From Paenibacillus timonensis (GTDB lineage: Bacteria; Bacillota; Bacilli; Paenibacillales; Paenibacillaceae), in contig NZ_WNZY01000003.1 of the NCBI RefSeq assembly GCF_009725205.1, forward strand, positions 248,001 to 312,000: a DNA stretch of 64,000 nt. Direction: 5' to 3'. Numbering within the stretch: position 1 is the stretch's first letter; every line of letters begins with the position of its first letter. A model generated the notes under the pieces. It did not search any database. It was not told the origin of the DNA and saw nothing but the letters and a program-made list of their open reading frames with translations. The translations under genes and the position numbers were made by a program. Below are positions 39,933 through 48,443 of this stretch, one piece after another.

Positions 39933-39968
39933 AAAAGGCTGTCCCGTCTATATCTAGGGGACAGCCTT
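39933..39968 (-). terminator. Terminator of the candidate exopolysaccharide operon
   Basis: AAGGCTGTCCC / GGGACAGCCTT hairpin followed by TTTGC on the minus strand, immediately after the last gene of the operon. Confidence 0.85.
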
Positions 39969-39972
39969 CGCT

Positions 39973-40899
39973 TTAAGGCCCACTAAGTTTACTGTGCCAA
40001 GCCTCATAACTATGAACGGCAATACCGGCAAACGAGTTGTGCTTTCTTCCCAGTTCCTCCAACCCTTTCATCTCCCGGTTCAGCGAGGCAAGCGGCTGTT
40101 TATGGAAGGAAACGCCAGGCCCTTCCCGACTTTCGCCCACCTCGACGCCAACCCATACCCGCTTATTTTGCCGATCCGCTTCATTCAGCGTGCGCTTCGA
40201 GATTTCATAGATGCGGCCTGCGACATCCCGATACGCCATGATCGCCAAATAATCGAACTGGTCCACCATCCAATTGCCAAGCGGCAACTTCAGGGTCCCG
40301 CTCGGGTGGTCGATCTGGTCCAGCCAGAACGGAACGGCCGCACCAATCGCGAGCTCATTATACCTCGCTTCTTCCGTCCAGGCGCGGACGCCTTCCATCC
40401 ACTGTTCCACCACGGCTTCCTGATCCGTCTGCCAGCGGTCCAGCAAATAGGGCTCGACGTCCAGCTGTACACCGGTAAACCGCTCTTCGGCCCTCGCTTC
40501 CCGGTTGTAATCGACCACCCACTTCAAAAACTCCTCGGCCTCGTTCCTGTGCTCCCGCAGCGCCCAATCCGGGTGGCCGCTTAAGGCATGCACCTGAATG
40601 CCGGCTTTAGCAGCGGCTCGGATGAAGCTGCGATAGCTCTCCTTCCCCACCCCGCCGCCGATTTGCAGAAAGAGGGTGTCCACGCCCTGCTTGCGTGCAA
40701 AGGCCAGCACCTCGCCGGGATGCTGTTCGATGACCGTGGTCTCCCAGATCCAGGTGGCTTTCGCTTGTGAACCCGATGGCCGGATAAAAGCCAATAAAAC
40801 AAGCAAAACCATCATTAGCATCCCGCCGAGTGCAAGCAGGGCTGGCCGCTTGCTTCCCGGAAAGGCCCGAAGGCGAACGAATATCGGCTTTCTGAACAT
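39973..40899 (-). CDS. Membrane-anchored TIM-barrel protein, possible glycosidase, in exopolysaccharide operon
   Basis: 308 residues. One N-terminal transmembrane segment (about 20-39) anchors an extracellular domain. The domain looks like a TIM barrel: TLFLQIGGG, IQVHALSGHPDW, FTGVQLDVEPYLLDRW (Asp147, Glu149), LAIGAAVPFWLD, YLAIMAYRD and VWVGVEVGES fall at beta-strand spacings. The LDVEPY strand recalls the catalytic DxE end of GH18-like hydrolases, but only the last Asp and Glu match. The start ATG at 40899 has AGGAGCTTG upstream. It is the last of six genes and may trim or process the polymer. The activity is inference. Confidence 0.65.
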   Translation of the reverse strand: MFRKPIFVRLRAFPGSKRPALLALGGMLMMVLLVLLAFIRPSGSQAKATWIWETTVIEQHPGEVLAFARKQGVDTLFLQIGGGVGKESYRSFIRAAAKAGIQVHALSGHPDWALREHRNEAEEFLKWVVDYNREARAEERFTGVQLDVEPYLLDRWQTDQEAVVEQWMEGVRAWTEEARYNELAIGAAVPFWLDQIDHPSGTLKLPLGNWMVDQFDYLAIMAYRDVAGRIYEISKRTLNEADRQNKRVWVGVEVGESREGPGVSFHKQPLASLNREMKGLEELGRKHNSFAGIAVHSYEAWHSKLSGP

Positions 40900-40914
40900 C
40901 AAGCTCCTGTCCTT

Positions 40915-42279
40915 TTATCCTACGATCAGCGCAGGAGACTCTTCGTTGACCTGCGCAACGGAGTGTCCAATCTTGTAGACATGCGGCAGCGGATACTCAC
41001 GGAACGCATTACGCGTATCGACGATCGGCACGCCGAGGCGGGCGATCCCCTCATAATCGAAATTGCTGTGATTGGTCACCAACACGATGCAGTCGTAGGC
41101 CTTGAATTTGTCGAGCTCGTAAGCAACGCTGTGCACGACGCCGCCCGATTTTTCACGGAAGCTTGCCGCATACGGGTCATAATAATCCACTTTGGCTCCG
41201 CTATCCTTAAACAGCTCGTACACCGACAAACCTGGGGATTCGCGCAGGTCGGCGATATCGGGCTTGTAAGCCATGCCGAGTATGAGAATCCGGGATTTCT
41301 TGATCGATTTAGCGTATTCGTTCATGATTTTGGACGTCTTGTTGACGACGTAATATGGCATGTTATCGTTGGTTGACTGCGCCAGCTCGATGAACTGGCT
41401 ATAGAAACGGAAACCCTTCGCTTTCCAGCTCAGGTACATGGGGTCCAGCGGAATGCAGTGACCCCCGATGCCAGGTCCCGGATAAAACGGCATAAACCCA
41501 AACGGCTTGGTCTTCGCCGCATCGATCACTTCCCAAATGTCGATGCCCATGCGGTCGCACATCATGGCCATTTCGTTGACAAAGGCAATGTTGACGCTGC
41601 GGAACGTATTCTCCAGCAGTTTGGACATTTCCGCTACTTTAGGCGAAGAAACCGGCACGACCGTTTGGACATACCGGGAATACAGTGCCGTCCCCAAATC
41701 CAGGCAGGCCTTCGTCGTTCCTCCGATGACCTTCGGGGTATTGAAGGTGTTGAATTTCGAATTCGATGGATCCACCCGCTCCGGTGAAAAGCAGAGGAAG
41801 AAATCTTCGCCAGCCGTATACCCCAGCTTCTCCAGTTCTTGTTGGATCAGCTCTTCGGTCGTCCCCGGATAGGTTGTGCTTTCCAGCGTGATTAGCATGC
41901 CCTTCTTCATGTATCGTTTCAACTGATCCACCACGGTGACGATGTAGGAGGTATCGGGGTCCTGGTTTTCGCTCAGCGGCGTCGGCACGCAGATACTGAC
42001 CGCGTCAATTTCGGACAAATTCGCATAATCCGTGGTTGGAAGAAACCGTCCCGTCCCCATCGCTTCCGCCAATGTTTGGGAAGAGATATCGTGGATATAC
42101 GAATCTCCACGTTGGATTTTATCGATTTTCGCGACATCAAGATCGATGCCAACCACCCGGAAACCCTGCTTTACCATTTCGACCGCTAGCGGCAGTCCGA
42201 CATAGCCTAGACCCACAACGCCCAATACGGCGGTTTTCGATTCAATCGCATTCATCAGCTTCTGGTAATGATTATTCAC
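40915..42279 (-). CDS. Nucleotide-sugar (UDP-sugar) dehydrogenase
   Basis: 454 residues. It has the NAD-binding GLGYVGLPLA motif near residue 24, the UDPG/MGDH central domain (FVNEMAMMCDRMGIDIWEVIDAA) and the catalytic Cys in GPGIGGHCIPLDPMYL. The C-terminal UDP-binding domain contains LGMAYKPDIADLRESP. This family makes UDP-uronic acids (UDP-GlcA, UDP-GlcNAcA or UDP-ManNAcA); sequence resembles the GlcNAc/ManNAc 6-dehydrogenase group more than the UDP-glucose one. It uses a GTG start preceded by GGAGGTAGAAACCT. It would feed an acidic sugar to the synthase encoded upstream. Confidence 0.92.
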   Translation of the reverse strand: MNNHYQKLMNAIESKTAVLGVVGLGYVGLPLAVEMVKQGFRVVGIDLDVAKIDKIQRGDSYIHDISSQTLAEAMGTGRFLPTTDYANLSEIDAVSICVPTPLSENQDPDTSYIVTVVDQLKRYMKKGMLITLESTTYPGTTEELIQQELEKLGYTAGEDFFLCFSPERVDPSNSKFNTFNTPKVIGGTTKACLDLGTALYSRYVQTVVPVSSPKVAEMSKLLENTFRSVNIAFVNEMAMMCDRMGIDIWEVIDAAKTKPFGFMPFYPGPGIGGHCIPLDPMYLSWKAKGFRFYSQFIELAQSTNDNMPYYVVNKTSKIMNEYAKSIKKSRILILGMAYKPDIADLRESPGLSVYELFKDSGAKVDYYDPYAASFREKSGGVVHSVAYELDKFKAYDCIVLVTNHSNFDYEGIARLGVPIVDTRNAFREYPLPHVYKIGHSVAQVNEESPALIVG

Positions 42280-42323
42280 AGGTTTCTACCTCCATTTTTT
42301 GTCTGTAATTGATTCGGGTCAAA

Positions 42324-43136
42324 TTATTGGATGCAACGCCGAATTCGGGCATCCAGCTCCACCGGGGAAAACGGCTTAGTGATGTAATCGTCCACCCCGT
42401 TTTGGAAGCACAAGCTGATCGTCTTCTCTACGCGTTGTTCCGTCAGGACGACGATACTCGGCATCTCCTCGCCGCTCGCCTGCTGGATTTGATGAATATA
42501 AGGCAGACCGTCGATGCCGTACAGGTTCAGCTCCGTCAGTACCAGATCGGGCTTCCAATCGGTGATCAAATCCAAGGCGGTGATGCCGTTATCGGCTATC
42601 ATCGTCTCATAGCCCTGCATATTCAGCCGGATTTGTAGGAATTCGCGTACCGCCGGGTCTCCCTCTACGATCAGGATCCGGCTTTTTACGAGCAACAAGT
42701 CCGCTTTCGTAAAAATATGGATATCATCGGAGTAATTCTGCTTGGCTTTCTCCTCCATTTGACTCAGCAGTTGCGGCGTGATTTCCTCCCGTGTAGAGAA
42801 GCTGGACAGCGCCATCCGCGGACGATAATCGGCAATGCGCTCCTGTAGCTGCTGCTTCAGCCGCAAGCCTTGATAATGGACGGCATCCAGCGCCAGGCCC
42901 GGCAGTAGTACCGCCACGCTCCCCGGCTCGTCTCCGCCCCATACATCAAACTGAAGTCCCGGTTCGGATTCCAGAATTCCCCGCACTTGGGAAGCCACGT
43001 AAGAGGGGCCGCCTGCGGAATAAATGAACAGCACCCCGTTCACCTCGTTGGCCGTTTCCCTCACGCGTTGTTCCATGTCGGCATATAAGCCGGATCGTTC
43101 CGTTTGGTTTTGCAGTGCCATCAGGTTTGACATCAT
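42324..43136 (-). CDS. Degenerate GGDEF plus pseudo-receiver protein
   Basis: 270 residues. Residues 20-135 resemble a shrunken GGDEF domain: VWGGDEPGSVAVLLPGLALDAV retains GGDE (67-70) but lacks an intact GGDEF helix-turn and the full fold length. Residues 152-270 are a receiver domain with acidic residues Glu158/Asp160 and the conserved Lys254 (TKPF). The phosphate-accepting Asp is replaced by Glu202 (DLVLTELNLYGIDG). Such a change often mimics phosphorylation or makes the domain constitutively active. It lies between synthase and dehydrogenase genes and may control synthase output. No DNA-binding or output domain exists. Confidence 0.8.
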   Translation of the reverse strand: MMSNLMALQNQTERSGLYADMEQRVRETANEVNGVLFIYSAGGPSYVASQVRGILESEPGLQFDVWGGDEPGSVAVLLPGLALDAVHYQGLRLKQQLQERIADYRPRMALSSFSTREEITPQLLSQMEEKAKQNYSDDIHIFTKADLLLVKSRILIVEGDPAVREFLQIRLNMQGYETMIADNGITALDLITDWKPDLVLTELNLYGIDGLPYIHQIQQASGEEMPSIVVLTEQRVEKTISLCFQNGVDDYITKPFSPVELDARIRRCIQ

Positions 43137-43270
43137 TCATTCCCGCCTTTCTTCTTCCGTAAGTTTATCCTTGTTTGGTTATTTCGTGGATCCAAGCCTT
43201 CCCTTTACCCTATCATCCCCTTTCCGGCCACCGGCCGCGAAGCGGGGGGAGGAGGAGAGATGCCCGAAGG

Positions 43271-44749
43271 CTATGCGGATTTGGCCGGTTTCGCCGTTTT
43301 GGCGGCCGCCTCCCCTTTGTCCTGCCAGCTTTGGCGGGTCATCGTCCCCCAGGAATTGTTGTTGCGCAGAAACTGGATATGCCCTTGAATCCGCCACAAT
43401 CCCCCGAGCTGTGCGTAACCGAAAAACTTGAACGCCGAAAACAACAGCAGCTTGCACAAGTCCGACAGCTTATTGAACCGCTTGAACGCGAGTTCCTCAA
43501 GGAGTAACGCCCCGATGCTGAGCACGTAACCGCTGAGGAAGTTGATCAGCCAGAACACCGCAAGGACCCGCCAATGCGTCATATCGAGCAACGTGTACCC
43601 GATCAGGGCGAGCAGCCCGGTAACTTTGAAATAAGGGTTTAATGCTTCAAAAATGATGTTGTACGGCATCGTCAGGAGCCCCATCACCTTGTATTTCGGA
43701 TTGAAGGCCATGTCGTAGTTCTCGATCATGTTCTTCAGATTACCACGGCCCCATCGCTTGCGCTGGTTGGACAGAATCCGGTACGTATCCGGCGCCTGCG
43801 TCCAGCACACCGCTTCCGGACAAAATGAAATACGGTATTTCAACTTATTCTCCAGCATATAACGGTGGAGCTTGATGATGATGTTCATATCCTCGCCGGG
43901 ATACCCTCCGCGATAACCGCCGACGGCGATGACATAATCCTTGCGGAACAGGCCGAACGCTCCCGACACAATGATTAGCCCATTGATCGAGCTCCAACCG
44001 ATCCGCCCTCCGAGGAACGCCTTCAGGTATTCCGTAGCCTGGAACATCGGCCAGATTTTACGGGGCAGCGAAACTTCCTTCACCGCCCCGTTCTCGATCA
44101 CGCAGCCGTTGGCGATTCGCACGTCGCCGCCGATGGCGACGGTCTCCTCCGGGTTCTCCATATACATGCGGGCCATCCGGATCAACGCATCCTTCTCCAG
44201 CAGCGAATCGGCATCGATCGAAGAGATGAGCGGATAATGCGACAGGTTGATGCCGGCATTCAGCGAATCGGCCTTGCCGCCGTTGGGCTTGTCGATGACG
44301 TACAGATGTGGATACTTCGGGTTATGGTACACCGCCGTAATCGGTTGGCAGTCGATCGTGTGACGGATGTCCGGATCCGGCAGCAGCATCAACTCGAATT
44401 CGTCCCGCAACACCCCCAGCGTGTTGTCCTTGGACCCGTCGTTAATCACGATCACTTCGTAAGTCGGATAATTCAGGGTCAGGAGGCATTTGACGTTTTC
44501 GATGACCGTGATCTCCTCGTTAAAAGCCGGCACCAGCAACGAAACCGGCGGTACCAGTTCGGAACCGGACAACGTGTTGTATTTCGAATAGGCAGCCCGG
44601 CGGAAGATCGTAAGAATTTGCCGGAACGAAAAGGTCATGATCGAAAAATAAACCAAGTTGACCGTCATGACGTAATACGTCGCAAACAGGCCATAGATCA
44701 GCAAAATATCTCTAAGCAGTGGTCTCCCTCCTCTCAAGCGCAAAAGCAA
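43271..44749 (-). CDS. Processive family 2 glycosyltransferase (polysaccharide synthase)
   Basis: About 490 residues. Two N-terminal membrane helices (about 14-48) precede the catalytic domain, with three or four more after residue 355. Synthase motifs are all present: VINDGS (Asp104), SSIDADS (Asp179, Asp181), PGED (Asp287, general base) and QRKRW (329-333), as in hyaluronan, cellulose and poly-GlcNAc synthases. It would polymerise and export a sugar polymer. The start is uncertain. The TTG at 44749 overlaps the HEAT gene by 38 bases with a weak ribosome site, whereas GGAGGGAGACCA is followed by a CTG at 44719. Confidence 0.93.
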   Translation of the reverse strand: MLLRLRGGRPLLRDILLIYGLFATYYVMTVNLVYFSIMTFSFRQILTIFRRAAYSKYNTLSGSELVPPVSLLVPAFNEEITVIENVKCLLTLNYPTYEVIVINDGSKDNTLGVLRDEFELMLLPDPDIRHTIDCQPITAVYHNPKYPHLYVIDKPNGGKADSLNAGINLSHYPLISSIDADSLLEKDALIRMARMYMENPEETVAIGGDVRIANGCVIENGAVKEVSLPRKIWPMFQATEYLKAFLGGRIGWSSINGLIIVSGAFGLFRKDYVIAVGGYRGGYPGEDMNIIIKLHRYMLENKLKYRISFCPEAVCWTQAPDTYRILSNQRKRWGRGNLKNMIENYDMAFNPKYKVMGLLTMPYNIIFEALNPYFKVTGLLALIGYTLLDMTHWRVLAVFWLINFLSGYVLSIGALLLEELAFKRFNKLSDLCKLLLFSAFKFFGYAQLGGLWRIQGHIQFLRNNNSWGTMTRQSWQDKGEAAAKTAKPAKSA

Positions 44750-45467
44750 ATCGTCCCAGTGCCGGTGCCTCCTCCGGCACTTCTTGTCCTCGCATCGCAG
44801 CCAGCGCCACCTTGACCAAATCCTCGTTATCCTCCTTCAACAACTGGAGCAGAAGACGGCTCGCATCCAGCCGTGTCTCCATCAGGATATCGGCGGCAAG
44901 GTGATGAATCGGCTTGCCGTGGCGCAGGAGATGGACCAGCATATCCCTAAGCTGCTGCTCCTGTTCCGCGCTTTTGGCGATCGAGCGGGCAAGCACGATG
45001 CTCAGCGGACTATATTTCTGATGCTTCAGCATCTCCAGCAGCCGCGGCACCGCTTCGGCCGCCCGCATTCCGCCGAGGCGGTAGGCAGCGGCGATCCGCC
45101 GCCCGTAAAACAAGCTGTCGAGCAACTTCAGGTCTTCCCGGACAAAACCGGCGTTGTAACATAAAGCGATCAGCTTCTGCTGCAAATCGCCCTTAAATTG
45201 TTCGATCCACTCGGTTACCCGTTGCTGGATCACCCGCCGCTCCAGATCCCCAAGCTTGCCGGGCGGTAGCGGAAGCTCCTCGGCATCGCCCAGATGGGCT
45301 TGGAGGAACAGGAAGTAATCCTGATGCTTCCGCTGATATTCCTTCGTTTTGCGCTGAATGCGCAAATGCCGGATTTTCATATAAAACAAGAGCAGCATGC
45401 CTATGCCGATCAGCCCCAGGCATACATAAATAAAGGCAATTGCCAGTCCAAGATGCTGACCCGCCAT
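44712..45467 (-). CDS. Membrane-anchored HEAT-repeat protein
   Basis: 251 residues. One N-terminal transmembrane helix (about 7-30) is followed by a basic, Gln-rich linker. Then come helical HEAT-like repeats from about residue 110: RRIAAAYRLGGMRAAEAVPRLLEML, then repeats of the form ADILMETR.DASRLLLQLL and EDLVKVALAAM. It is a cytoplasmic scaffold by topology. HEAT proteins next to GT2 synthases occur in Bacilli, probably as assembly partners. AAAGGAGGAAAACAGG precedes the ATG. Its 3' end overlaps the synthase reading frame. No enzymatic role is suggested. Confidence 0.85.
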   Translation of the reverse strand: MAGQHLGLAIAFIYVCLGLIGIGMLLLFYMKIRHLRIQRKTKEYQRKHQDYFLFLQAHLGDAEELPLPPGKLGDLERRVIQQRVTEWIEQFKGDLQQKLIALCYNAGFVREDLKLLDSLFYGRRIAAAYRLGGMRAAEAVPRLLEMLKHQKYSPLSIVLARSIAKSAEQEQQLRDMLVHLLRHGKPIHHLAADILMETRLDASRLLLQLLKEDNEDLVKVALAAMRGQEVPEEAPALGRFAFALERRETTA

Positions 45468-45492
45468 CCTGTTTTCCTCCTTTCGGCGCCAG

Positions 45493-47739
45493 TTATTCTC
45501 CCGTCGTTCGCCGATCCGGCAAGCTTTGGTAGAACGCCTGCAGGGCGTAATAACCGGACTTGAGCCGTTCGGTATACTGCACGGTTTCCCATGGCTGCCA
45601 CACGTATTTCGGGAATGCGTCCAATGAGACGTTTTCCCGGGTTTCTCCGCTTTCCGTTCCCGGACCCAGAACCCCCGCTTCGCCCCGCTCCATGATCCAT
45701 GGAATTAGGGTCAGGCCGTCCGATTCGGTCGTCGAGAAGGCCCGGTCCTCCTTCAAAGGCCGGTAGTCAATCACTTGCCGCGAGCTAGGATCCGCAAAGC
45801 CCAGCAGCATCCAGGGAATGCGTAGTTCTACCTCATTGCCGCTGTACTGCCAAGAAGCAAGCGAGTTGAAATCGGCGTTTCCCGGATCGGTGGTGCCGCG
45901 AATCAGCTTGCCGACGGTCATGTCCTGGAACGGATGAGCGAAGCGGGTGTCGGGCGGCGTCATCGTCAAGCTGACCGCCAGCTTCCAAGGTTGAAACTCT
46001 ACAGTTTGCTCCTCCGTAGGATCGTCAAGCATCCAATATCCGTATCGCCCGTAAAGTCGGCGATGGAAATCGTAACTTGGCGCCGTCAGCACTTCGGTCT
46101 CCTCGTCATTTCCGATCTCCACGATCGCCTCCAGGCCGTCGCTCAGCGTTCGCCCAGGCAGCTCCGCCACCGGCTGATTCCCGCCGGGCTGCGTATCTGC
46201 GCCAAGCCGAATCAACCGCTTGGCCGGGTCGAACGGGTCGCTTAGCTGAAGACCCACGTAGACATAAGCTTCGTCGTGCGTGACCTGCAACCGGTCGATC
46301 CCTGCCGACGGACGATCCCAGGCTTGGACCTCCCCTTCCGGCAGGGATTCCCAATCCTCCAGCTTGCCGTCGATCATGAGGTCGTCCTCTTTACCAGGGC
46401 CCATCGACAACAGACCGAATTGTTTTTCATTGGTCAACACGTTTAGCCAAAAAGCGCGTCGATCCTCCGGGATCTCAAACCGCATCGTATTCCACGTTTT
46501 CTTGAACCATTCATCCTGCCACATGAACAAGATGGCACCGGCATACCCCGTATCATAAATATCCTTCGTCAGAGAGACGTTGATCTCTCCCTGCTCTTGC
46601 TCGTTGTGGCCGCCCTGATTCCGTCCGCCCCGTCCGAGGTGGGAGACGCCCAGCGAGGAAGGAACGCCATATTCGGTAATCATCACCGGGATGTCCTTAT
46701 AGTAATTTTTTAGCTCCTGCAAATAAGCCTTGTAGGTGTTGAAGTCCCCATCCCCATCAGGGATCGTCTCCAGCGTTTTGTCTAGATGGAAAAAGTCCGG
46801 ATAATACGGGTACGCATGATAAGCGGCGAAATAACCCGCTTCCCATTCCACGGGCCGAATATGCGTAGCGTCGACGCTGGCCAGGTCCTCCTCGAACAAC
46901 GGTTCACCGGGATGCTGCAACACATCCGTCGTCACCCAGTTCGTAAACGTGATGGGATGCTCCCACCCGTACGCGCGTTCCTTCTGGGCGGTGTCGTCTA
47001 CCAGCTCTGCCAGCCAGCTCTCGAATGGACTCGCCTCGTCTGTCGCCGTGAAATGCTGCCCTTGATACGGCGGAAGTTCAGCGTGCTTGCGGTTCGTGTT
47101 ATCCACCATCTCCGGGTCCCATTCGGTGCCGATATGCCAGGCCATCAGGTAGGGACCGGCATTTGCGGTATACTTGCCGCCCGACGTTCCCGGCTGTTTC
47201 GGGACCTTCAAATCGCCGTAAACGGCTTTAACCGCCTTTTCGATCTCTCGGTGAAAAGCCTCCTTAATCCCGGGAATGTAAGCATCCTGCTGCTCGATTA
47301 ACTGCTCCTCCGGCGACCAGATGCCTTGGATGAAATAGAGGGGGTCCTTCCCCTTGTCCCGGTTGTATTTAACCAGAGACTTGTAGAACACCGGATTATG
47401 CACCGTATAAATTCGAATCACATTTGCGCCCATGTCATCAATCTGCTGGAACCAGCGCAAGTAATCGTCTTCCGTAATCGGAAATTCCCCGGGAAAATAT
47501 CCCGGCACCGTCGCCCCCAGGTTGACGCCTTTGACGAACAACTCCTCCCAACTGCTTTCGCCGTCATAGGCGAGAAGTTTGTCGCCTTCGGTACGGAACT
47601 TCAGCTCCGTTCCGTCCTTTGCCGCATAGCTGTAATGAGGCGGCGGCCAATTTAGAACGGCCAGAACCACGCAGCCTGCGATGAAGACGCCCGCCAGGAC
47701 AAGCCCCATCGCCAACCTTTTTTTCGCTAATGTCGTCAT
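45493..47739 (-). CDS. Membrane-anchored clan GH-A-like glycosidase with C-terminal carbohydrate-binding-like domain
   Basis: 748 residues. A transmembrane segment (about 8-30) exposes the rest outside. Residues 60-420 look like a clan GH-A TIM barrel: KGVNLGATVPGYFP, GANVIRIYTVHNP, MAWHIGTEWDPE (candidate acid/base Glu206) and PVMITEYGVPSSLG (candidate nucleophile Glu356). Residues about 455-725 are beta-rich, beginning DDLMIDGKLEDWESLPEGE, as in DOMON/CBM9-like sugar-binding modules. AAGGGTAATCCG precedes the ATG. It is the first gene of the operon and would act on the polymer or its lipid- or wall-bound form. Substrate is not deduced. Confidence 0.75.
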   Translation of the reverse strand: MTTLAKKRLAMGLVLAGVFIAGCVVLAVLNWPPPHYSYAAKDGTELKFRTEGDKLLAYDGESSWEELFVKGVNLGATVPGYFPGEFPITEDDYLRWFQQIDDMGANVIRIYTVHNPVFYKSLVKYNRDKGKDPLYFIQGIWSPEEQLIEQQDAYIPGIKEAFHREIEKAVKAVYGDLKVPKQPGTSGGKYTANAGPYLMAWHIGTEWDPEMVDNTNRKHAELPPYQGQHFTATDEASPFESWLAELVDDTAQKERAYGWEHPITFTNWVTTDVLQHPGEPLFEEDLASVDATHIRPVEWEAGYFAAYHAYPYYPDFFHLDKTLETIPDGDGDFNTYKAYLQELKNYYKDIPVMITEYGVPSSLGVSHLGRGGRNQGGHNEQEQGEINVSLTKDIYDTGYAGAILFMWQDEWFKKTWNTMRFEIPEDRRAFWLNVLTNEKQFGLLSMGPGKEDDLMIDGKLEDWESLPEGEVQAWDRPSAGIDRLQVTHDEAYVYVGLQLSDPFDPAKRLIRLGADTQPGGNQPVAELPGRTLSDGLEAIVEIGNDEETEVLTAPSYDFHRRLYGRYGYWMLDDPTEEQTVEFQPWKLAVSLTMTPPDTRFAHPFQDMTVGKLIRGTTDPGNADFNSLASWQYSGNEVELRIPWMLLGFADPSSRQVIDYRPLKEDRAFSTTESDGLTLIPWIMERGEAGVLGPGTESGETRENVSLDAFPKYVWQPWETVQYTERLKSGYYALQAFYQSLPDRRTTGE

Positions 47740-48443
47740 CGGATTACCCTTATTTCACCTCGCTGTTCTTCTTTTCGTGCTCGTTCTGAACAACCGAATC
47801 CCCCGGCCGTACGCCGACATTCCCGAGGAGCACAGCGTCCTATCGAACGGCCGCTTTCTATGCAGCTATACAGGTGATGATTCAGTATGGCCGATTCGCA
47901 CCTCCGCTTCTCAAAATCACTATTTATCATGAACCAAGCGCCCCTATCATGTAACTAGGCTAATGGGAGTGTTTTACAGCTGGGGCTGTTTTCCGGGGGA
48001 GACGGATTTTCGGCATCTCTATCCCGCTTGGTCATTTCGTGATATTAGACGTACAAAATTCATCTAGGTTTCGCTCAATTTTTACACCCTTTTCCATAAT
48101 GGTTACAAAATTGATACCAAAGTCTTGTCTGAAAATCGCGTCATTCTGCGGTTTTCCACGATTTTCTAAGGTTACAGCCCTTGTCAAAAAAAGCTTCCCT
48201 GGTCCCAGCCTGGGACTAGCGTTTTTCCGTCGTTTACGATGACGGATTTTCGTCGGGCCATCCCGCCTTGATCGGCGACTTCCTTCCTAAAAAATGACGT
48301 TTTCCCGCCCTTTTCCATCTTGGGACTCGAAATACAGATTTCACCAGACGTTAACAAAATAAGCTCCCCATCCGCCAGCGGCAGATCAGCAGCTTAATAG
48401 ATTTACCTTCGTTTAATGCGGGCTTTACCCGTCGTTGACTTGC
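47740..48443. other. Long non-coding gap upstream of the exopolysaccharide operon, with a degenerate duplication
   Basis: No gene is supported in these 704 bases. Two blocks share order and spacing: GACGGATTTTCG at 48001 and at 48241, each followed about 21 bases later by a TCCCGC..TTG segment and then by a CCCTTTTCCAT segment. A palindrome GTCCCAGCCTGGGAC lies between at about 48204. The area must contain the operon promoter, but no convincing one was found; whether the blocks are leader elements or a decayed repeat is unclear. Confidence 0.4.

What the first reader, a model, noticed from the sequence alone, without database searches (positions are those of the whole stretch)
39973..47739. 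Six-gene candidate exopolysaccharide system with an unusual synthase-control module
A GH-A-like membrane-anchored protein, a HEAT-repeat scaffold, a processive GT2 synthase (DxD, ED and QRKRW present), a degenerate GGDEF/pseudo-receiver, a UDP-sugar dehydrogenase and a second membrane-anchored TIM-barrel protein are packed on one strand, ending at one terminator. The combination does not match the cellulose (bcs), PNAG (ica/pga) or hyaluronan operons I know: no BcsB, PgaB or PilZ domain is seen. Two putative hydrolases at the ends suggest processing of an acidic polymer.
Basis: partly seen in the sequence, partly recalled or inferred. Interest (0 to 1): 0.75.

Follow-up and report, generated by a model that had tools for sequence, protein, structure and literature searches.

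The report
Undescribed HEAT-GT2 exopolysaccharide synthase operon
A six-gene Paenibacillus operon looks like a machine for making and trimming a charged sugar polymer outside the cell; it belongs to a widespread but apparently undescribed class of such machines, and its built-in switch protein seems to have lost the sites that usually turn such machines on and off.

Summary
Six minus-strand genes (GH-A-like GHA, short HEAT protein, GT2 synthase, degenerate-GGDEF/pseudo-receiver REG, nucleotide-sugar dehydrogenase UDPDH, second barrel-like TIM2) lie before one terminator. The first five were found together in all 80 GT2 relatives kept (of 165), TIM2 in 79. Best reading: a synthase-dependent exopolysaccharide system with a new parts list. 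Sister systems in other Bacillota share a HEAT-GT2 core, and natural fusions (TIM2-GHA, GHA-HEAT, HEAT-GT2-module) link the parts. Some orthologous operons carry glmM, or glmS with a glmU-like gene; with the GGHC-type dehydrogenase this suggests a hexosaminuronic acid polymer (inferred). Sister regulators lost the GGDEF active site (16/16) but often keep the c-di-GMP I-site (11/16); the window's family lacks both, and its phospho-Asp is Glu in 71 of 81, so second-messenger and phosphorylation control were probably lost. Against: GHA lacks this GT2 in 11 of 20 distant loci, and UDPDH ranks like two paralogues. Ten searches of an open-access library showed no paper on the operon. Polymer, activities and regulation are untested.

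The parts
45493..47739 (-). GHA: N-terminal TM anchor, clan GH-A barrel, beta-rich C-terminal region; putative extracellular glycosidase or transglycosylase
44712..45467 (-). HEAT: N-terminal TM plus HEAT-like repeats, short form
   Evidence: hydrophobic stretch 10-28; most relatives about 400 aa, HEAT_2 70.6 bits in L048; about 145 aa missing in the window's clade
43271..44749 (-). GT2: membrane polysaccharide synthase; likely real start CTG at 44719
   Evidence: PF13641 64.1 bits; PgaC/IcaA model 135.4 bits, under its cut-off of 422.3; DADS, GED, QRxRW conserved; CTG at that place in 10 of 11 starts printed (window and 9 relatives), ATG in L086
42324..43136 (-). REG: degenerate GGDEF-like domain (about 1-150) plus pseudo-receiver (about 152-268)
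   Evidence: REC 75.8 bits; GGDEF by bridge, score 30.6 against at most 14.9 in 30 column shuffles; phospho-site E202, Glu in 71 of 81; model
40915..42279 (-). UDPDH: nucleotide-sugar dehydrogenase, UDP-N-acetylhexosamine type suspected
   Evidence: TIGR03026 431.6 bits; best solved relative Cap5O 241.5 bits; GGHCIPLD in 80 of 80 relatives
39973..40902 (-). TIM2: TM-anchored, probably TIM-barrel protein with conserved DxEPY; likely start ATG 40899
   Evidence: profile matches PDB 10yv (Cellulomonas fimi, depositors' name putative GH97) E 4.2e-29; D148, E150, P151, Y152 invariant in 29 aligned; hydrophobic stretch 22-40; fused to GHA in L139
39933..39966 (-). intrinsic terminator
   Evidence: read: 9-bp inverted repeat, loop 12, TTTT
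48048..48072 (-). ECF-sigma-like promoter GAAAC-N16-CGTC, about 330 nt before GHA
   Evidence: GAAAC-N15-17-CGT(C/A) within 450 nt of GHA in 18 of 81 loci against mean 0.5, max 2 in 20 dinucleotide shuffles; the consensus is recalled
47852..47990 (-). conserved leader block around GCCTAGTTA (47952-47960); no supported RNA structure
   Evidence: core in 51 of 81 loci; on 17 of these, 0 of 16 predicted pairs changed on both sides; z 0.29 for the window

Best explanation
The operon encodes a synthase-dependent exopolysaccharide system. The membrane GT2 polymerises a sugar chain from nucleotide sugars inside the cell and pushes it out. The TM-anchored HEAT protein is the cytoplasmic adaptor of the synthase. 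GHA, anchored on the outer face, cuts or re-joins the emerging chain with a Glu/Glu pair typical of clan GH-A; TIM2 is a second outer-face processing protein. UDPDH oxidises a UDP-N-acetylhexosamine, so the polymer probably carries N-acetylhexosaminuronic acid. REG is a reduced descendant of a REC-GGDEF-REC regulator. In sister systems that regulator looks like a c-di-GMP receptor with a histidine kinase beside it; in this lineage its c-di-GMP sites are gone and its receiver carries Glu in place of the phospho-Asp, so it probably acts as a permanently 'on' subunit, leaving control mainly to transcription, possibly from an ECF-sigma promoter. SHOWN by sequence or model: gene set, gene order, motifs, GH-A fold of GHA, fusions, lost sites, linked glm genes in some relatives. 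INFERRED: topology, export, enzyme activities, polymer chemistry, 'on' state, promoter use.
For: Five genes in the same order in 80 of 80 kept GT2 relatives, TIM2 detected in 79. In the sample of 148 family genomes, all 41 with a full GT2 at 63% identity or more have GHA within about 6 kb. In 37 wider GT2 loci a HEAT match adjoins or is fused in 34; GHA is within 6.5 kb in 29 and REC in 28, either strand. Fusions: L139 TIM2-GHA, L176 GHA-TM-HEAT, L173 HEAT-GT2-module, L132 GT2-module, and module-GHA in many long GHA proteins. GHA fold and catalytic pair. In 7 genomes chosen for the test, 4 have an operon-linked glmM besides a second glmM over the cut-off, and 1 has a second full glmS in the operon; glmS and glmU-like genes follow UDPDH in L086 and L139 by model, and in L087 by eye. 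UDPDH's nearest solved relative is Cap5O, GGHC type in 80 of 80. Sister regulators: A-site lost 16 of 16, I-site kept 11 of 16; both absent in the window. Phospho-Asp replaced by Glu in 71 of 81.
Against: GHA-family genes lie without this GT2 in 11 of 20 distant loci fetched, some on short contigs. In the 33 family loci of the 36-42% GT2 class GHA is linked in 20, elsewhere in the genome in 11 and not found in 2; one genome (G027) has GHA without GT2. The other two full-length dehydrogenases of the same genome rank much the same on the NCBIfam models and also carry GGHC, so the substrate is weakly resolved. No glm gene is linked in the window's own operon. Direct comparison of REG's N-terminus with six canonical GGDEFs was weak (E 0.03), and Pfam called GGDEF in none of 32 REGs. 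Glu at the site may be neutral, not activating; seven Cohnella and three Brevibacillus keep Asp (10 of 81). The strict promoter pattern is missing in 63 of 81 loci. Five of the 15 genomes of the genus listed lack the GT2.
Confidence: 0.62

Rival explanations
1. The operon makes a wall-attached acidic glycopolymer (teichuronic-acid-like or a secondary wall polymer) rather than free exopolysaccharide; GHA and TIM2 are attachment or trimming enzymes.
For: A hexosaminuronic acid type dehydrogenase and outer-face barrels fit an acidic wall polymer; ECF-type promoters often serve envelope stress (recalled); wide presence in Paenibacillus.
Against: No lipid-linked primer transferase, flippase, ABC exporter or LytR-CpsA-Psr ligase among the six genes; a processive membrane GT2 does not need them (established for HAS and BcsA; recalled).
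Confidence: 0.2
2. The polymer is neutral or PNAG/chitin-like, and UDPDH feeds another pathway or a side branch.
For: GT2's best NCBIfam model is PgaC/IcaA (135.4 bits); glmM, glmS and glmU-like links point to GlcNAc; of the 31 wider GT2 loci of the sister kind only L175 shows a UDPDH match nearby (33%).
Against: UDPDH is in the operon in 80 of 80 close relatives; the PgaC score is far below its cut-off; no deacetylase domain in the six genes.
Confidence: 0.15
3. REG still senses: its GGDEF-like domain binds a different ligand or partner, or the receiver binds a kinase without phosphorylation, and it gates the synthase.
For: REG is found in 80 of 80 relatives and its N-terminal domain folds confidently; H87 and L91 of that domain are invariant in 32 aligned.
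Against: No I-site, A-site or phospho-Asp in the window's REG; no kinase gene in the window's operon.
Confidence: 0.35

Closest known systems
Listeria pssA-E (PMC4125290; abstract shown within the passages seen)
   Same: GT2 (PssC) nearest to PNAG synthases and a degenerate GGDEF protein (PssE, an I-site c-di-GMP receptor) in one operon
   Different: There a BcsB-like partner is discussed and the receptor has an I-site. Here no BcsB domain, but a HEAT partner, GHA and TIM2, a dehydrogenase, and a REG without I-site
Bacillus subtilis ydaJKLMN (PMC13274460, passages seen)
   Same: Putative glycosyl hydrolase YdaJ on the outer side, c-di-GMP receptor YdaK (degenerate GGDEF: recalled), EPS enzymes YdaLMN (YdaM a GT2: recalled), alternative sigma factor
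   Different: No HEAT protein, dehydrogenase or TIM2 in the passages seen; controlled by SigB; YdaK binds c-di-GMP. Not compared by sequence here
Clostridial cellulose synthase ccsZABHI (PMC7710045, passages seen)
   Same: GT2 with a clan GH-A hydrolase (GH5 CcsZ) in a Gram-positive operon unlike Gram-negative ones
   Different: Has O-acetylation genes ccsH and ccsI and a CBM-like CcsB; no HEAT, GGDEF/receiver or dehydrogenase gene in the passages seen
Hyaluronan operon hasABC (recalled)
   Same: Processive GT2 plus a nucleotide-sugar dehydrogenase giving an acidic amino-sugar polymer
   Different: Solved HAS matches the GT2 profile only weakly (32.6 bits); has dehydrogenase is of UDP-glucose type (recalled); no HEAT, GHA or REG (recalled)
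PNAG ica/pga
   Same: PgaC/IcaA is the best-scoring named GT2 model
   Different: Score 135.4 against cut-off 422.3; no deacetylase domain in the six genes

Membership tests
Synthase-dependent exopolysaccharide systems (broad kind) | Membrane-embedded processive GT2 with D, DxD, ED and Q(Q/R)xRW motifs | tested here: met
   motifs; hydrophobic stretches at 15-33 and 395-413
Synthase-dependent exopolysaccharide systems (broad kind) | Partner glycoside hydrolase on the outer face, encoded with the synthase | tested here: met
   clan GH-A model of GHA with N-terminal hydrophobic stretch, linked in 80 of 80; activity and side of the membrane not testable here
Synthase-dependent exopolysaccharide systems (broad kind) | Polymer made by the GT2 and secreted | not testable with these tools
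   needs experiment
Cellulose bcs | CelA-type BcsA with PilZ, plus BcsB | tested here: not met
   CelA model 26.8 bits against cut-off 699.1; no PilZ or BcsB in the Pfam scan
PNAG ica/pga | PgaC/IcaA synthase over model cut-off | tested here: not met
   135.4 against 422.3 bits
PNAG ica/pga | PgaB/IcaB polysaccharide deacetylase in operon | tested here: not met
   no deacetylase domain in the six genes
Clan GH-A glycoside hydrolases (GHA) | (beta/alpha)8 barrel with two catalytic Glu at the ends of strands 4 and 7 | tested here: met
GH157 or any single CAZy family | Sequence-level membership | tested here: inconclusive
   16-18% identity in structural alignment only; no PDB sequence match for the profile
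Active diguanylate cyclase (REG) | GG(D/E)E(F/L) active site | tested here: not met
   0 of 81
I-site c-di-GMP receptor (REG) | RxxD five residues before the GGDEF position | tested here: not met
   no RxxD in the region in the window; some RxxD in that region in 5 of 81
I-site c-di-GMP receptor (sister regulators) | RxxD at the aligned place with ruined A-site | tested here: met
   11 of 16 aligned, 5 without; 18 proteins were picked, 2 without the domain dropped
Phosphorylatable receiver (REG) | Phospho-acceptor Asp | tested here: not met
   Glu in the window and in 71 of 81 in all; Asp in 10
UDP-N-acetylhexosamine 6-dehydrogenase (UDPDH) | Score over cut-off of a WecC, TviB or archaeal ManNAc DH equivalog model | tested here: not met
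   250 vs 459, 217.4 vs 592, 259.2 vs 750 bits; the two UDP-glucose models scored lower, 166 and 143

The most novel reading that the evidence does not exclude
The HEAT-GT2 core with a membrane-anchored GH-A enzyme is an undescribed, Bacillota-wide class of exopolysaccharide machine. Ancestrally it was run by an operon-encoded kinase and an I-site c-di-GMP receptor built as REC-GGDEF-REC. In the Paenibacillus/Cohnella/Brevibacillus line it gained its own UDP-HexNAc dehydrogenase and, in some operons, glm genes, and makes a hexosaminuronic acid polymer; its receptor lost both c-di-GMP sites, and in Paenibacillus became a Glu-locked pseudo-receiver, so the synthase escaped second-messenger control.
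Probability: 0.42. Interest if true: 0.72.

Novelty: new variant of a known kind. Interest (0 to 1): 0.56.

Why it matters
Few exopolysaccharide synthases of Gram-positive bacteria have been defined genetically. If right, this is a common machine of Paenibacillus and relatives with a new partner type for a GT2 (a HEAT adaptor), an unassigned clan GH-A family and a polymer that may be new. The graded series of regulators, from REC-GGDEF-REC with an I-site to a pseudo-receiver without it, makes the loss of c-di-GMP control of a synthase directly testable.

Tried and rejected
Structured leader RNA: a conserved block before GHA suggested hairpins, but on 17 aligned sequences (of 51 with the core) no predicted pair changed on both sides (0 of 16), and the window's block folds no better than shuffles (z 0.29). 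Rfam has no match at gathering score in the window and none near the leader at E up to 1 but a chance-level snR80. In six relatives the only match is a c-di-AMP riboswitch at L063:20017-20157, outside the operon. Kept as a conserved non-coding block only.

Romboutsia RiGT2 (mixed-linkage glucan): considered, dropped because its abstract gives it a C-terminal PilZ domain (PMC10374906, abstract and section list seen); not compared by sequence.

Lipocone paper PMC12419801: its one HEAT repeat passage is about beta-catenin. The operon survey PMC7112194 has no mention of Paenibacillus, Brevibacillus or HEAT in its main text (find).

Substrate of UDPDH from model ranking alone: not accepted as proof, since two paralogues of the same genome rank much alike.

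Fold search of REG: only the receiver was tested, as it filled the list. The GGDEF domain was not among the rows; this is no evidence against it. Direct profile comparison of REG's N-terminus with six canonical GGDEFs was weak (E 0.03); the bridge through sister regulators gave E 3.9e-4.

HPt-like starts of sister regulators: seen by eye only; Pfam did not call HPt in the one scanned, L123.
Full report
WHAT IS THERE. The window lies on contig 33 of a 5.12 Mb assembly. By GT2 identity its nearest named relatives in the genome collection are Paenibacillus timonensis, P. rubinfantis and P. mellifer (98%), P. phocaensis (97%) and P. barengoltzii (96%). Six minus-strand ORFs fill 39973-47739. Upstream lie a yolD-like and a dinB gene after a 704-base gap; downstream a terminator (39933-39966, read) and then a Crp/Fnr-like gene.

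SHORT HEAT PROTEIN. Most relatives have about 400 aa; 251 to 253 aa are found in the window, L009, L011, L012 and L014, and L010 has the same short C-terminus after a longer predicted start. The missing part holds the repeats that Pfam sees in L048. The last residues and the overlap with GT2 are kept, so this looks like an in-frame internal deletion (inference).

CO-OCCURRENCE. The search for related loci found 165 relatives of GT2 and kept the best 80. GHA, HEAT, GT2, REG and UDPDH were found in 80 of 80 and TIM2 in 79; gene order is. TIM2 is inverted or moved in Cohnella and in part of Brevibacillus and missing in L085, a short contig; GHA is split in two ORFs in L043. Among 148 genomes of the family GT2 was matched in 81 and GHA in 71. 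My counts from these two calls: all 41 genomes with a full GT2 at 63% identity or more have GHA within about 6 kb (G059, with a GT2 fragment only, was left out). Of 33 loci in the 36-42% class GHA is linked in 20, elsewhere in the genome in 11 and not found in 2. Matches of 36% and less form a third class, looked at only in L135-L137. G027 has GHA without a GT2 match. In the phylum sample GHA was found in 23 of 398 genomes, the window's own and three of its family included.

SISTER SYSTEMS. I fetched 28 weaker GT2 loci and 20 GHA loci outside the family (one fragment, G486, was not fetched). 37 held a GT2 of this family: 28 of 28 and 9 of 20. Of the 28, six (L138-L143) are of the window's own kind with 63-67% GT2 identity; 31 of the 37 are sister kind. 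HEAT adjoined or was fused in 34 of 37, GHA was within 6.5 kb in 29, a receiver protein in 28 and TIM2 in 10, either strand for the last three. The other 11 GHA loci have no such GT2, some on short contigs. Fusions join the parts in single polypeptides: L176 GHA with a C-terminal HEAT part (925-1045); L173 HEAT (88-298), GT2 (480-945) and a module (1006-1366); L132 GT2 and the same module; L139 TIM2 (28-319) and GHA (328-1023). The module, about 370 aa, also heads many long GHA proteins and stands alone right after GT2 in L123, L125, L127, L130 and L135. In L123 a histidine kinase and a REC-GGDEF-REC protein lie upstream (Pfam); similar genes are seen by eye in L124 and L126, with HPt-like starts that Pfam did not call in L123.

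PRECURSOR GENES. In G062 (L138), G105, G129 and G092 a glmM over the cut-off lies in the cluster and a second one elsewhere; G000, G110 and G019 have one (these seven were chosen after seeing the genes, so this is no survey). In L086 and L139 glmS and a glmU-like gene follow UDPDH by model, in L087 by eye; G110, the genome of L139, has a second full glmS. This points to UDP-GlcNAc as the precursor. The window's operon has none of these.

UPSTREAM REGION. GAAAC-N15-17-CGT(C/A) occurs within 450 nt of GHA in 18 of 81 loci (mean 0.5, max 2 in 20 shuffles); a relaxed form occurs in 27 of 81 (mean 3.7, max 7). This fits an ECF-sigma promoter (consensus recalled). A second block with GCCTAGTT(T)A occurs in 51 of 81, without covariation support.

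LITERATURE. Ten searches of the open-access library showed no paper on this operon; most subscription papers are not held. Nearest in design are pssA-E, ydaJKLMN and ccsZABHI, known to me here from passages only.

VERDICT. A real, conserved operon; most likely an exopolysaccharide synthase system with a new parts list and an unusual, apparently disarmed regulator. The polymer and every activity remain to be tested.

Noticed in passing
window 47852-47990 (-): A non-coding block around GCCTAGTTA is conserved before the operon in 51 of 81 loci; structure not supported, so perhaps a protein-binding site.
   Followed up: partly
window 48048-48072 (-): ECF-sigma-like promoter pattern about 330 nt before GHA, kept in close relatives, implying a long leader.
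   Followed up: partly
L173:13134-17270, L132:8834-11653, L135:10602-11732: An unnamed about 370-aa module fused to GT2, heading long GHA proteins, or standing alone after GT2.
   Followed up: partly
L140:15007-16797: One 596-aa ORF holds two TIM2-like domains.
   Followed up: no
L177, L182: GHA-family gene without this GT2; the neighbouring 674-aa ORF looks like an SPFH/flotillin-type protein by eye.
   Followed up: no
own genome G000: Only three full-length nucleotide-sugar dehydrogenases over the TIGR03026 cut-off, all with GGHC; no UDP-glucose-type copy was seen.
   Followed up: partly
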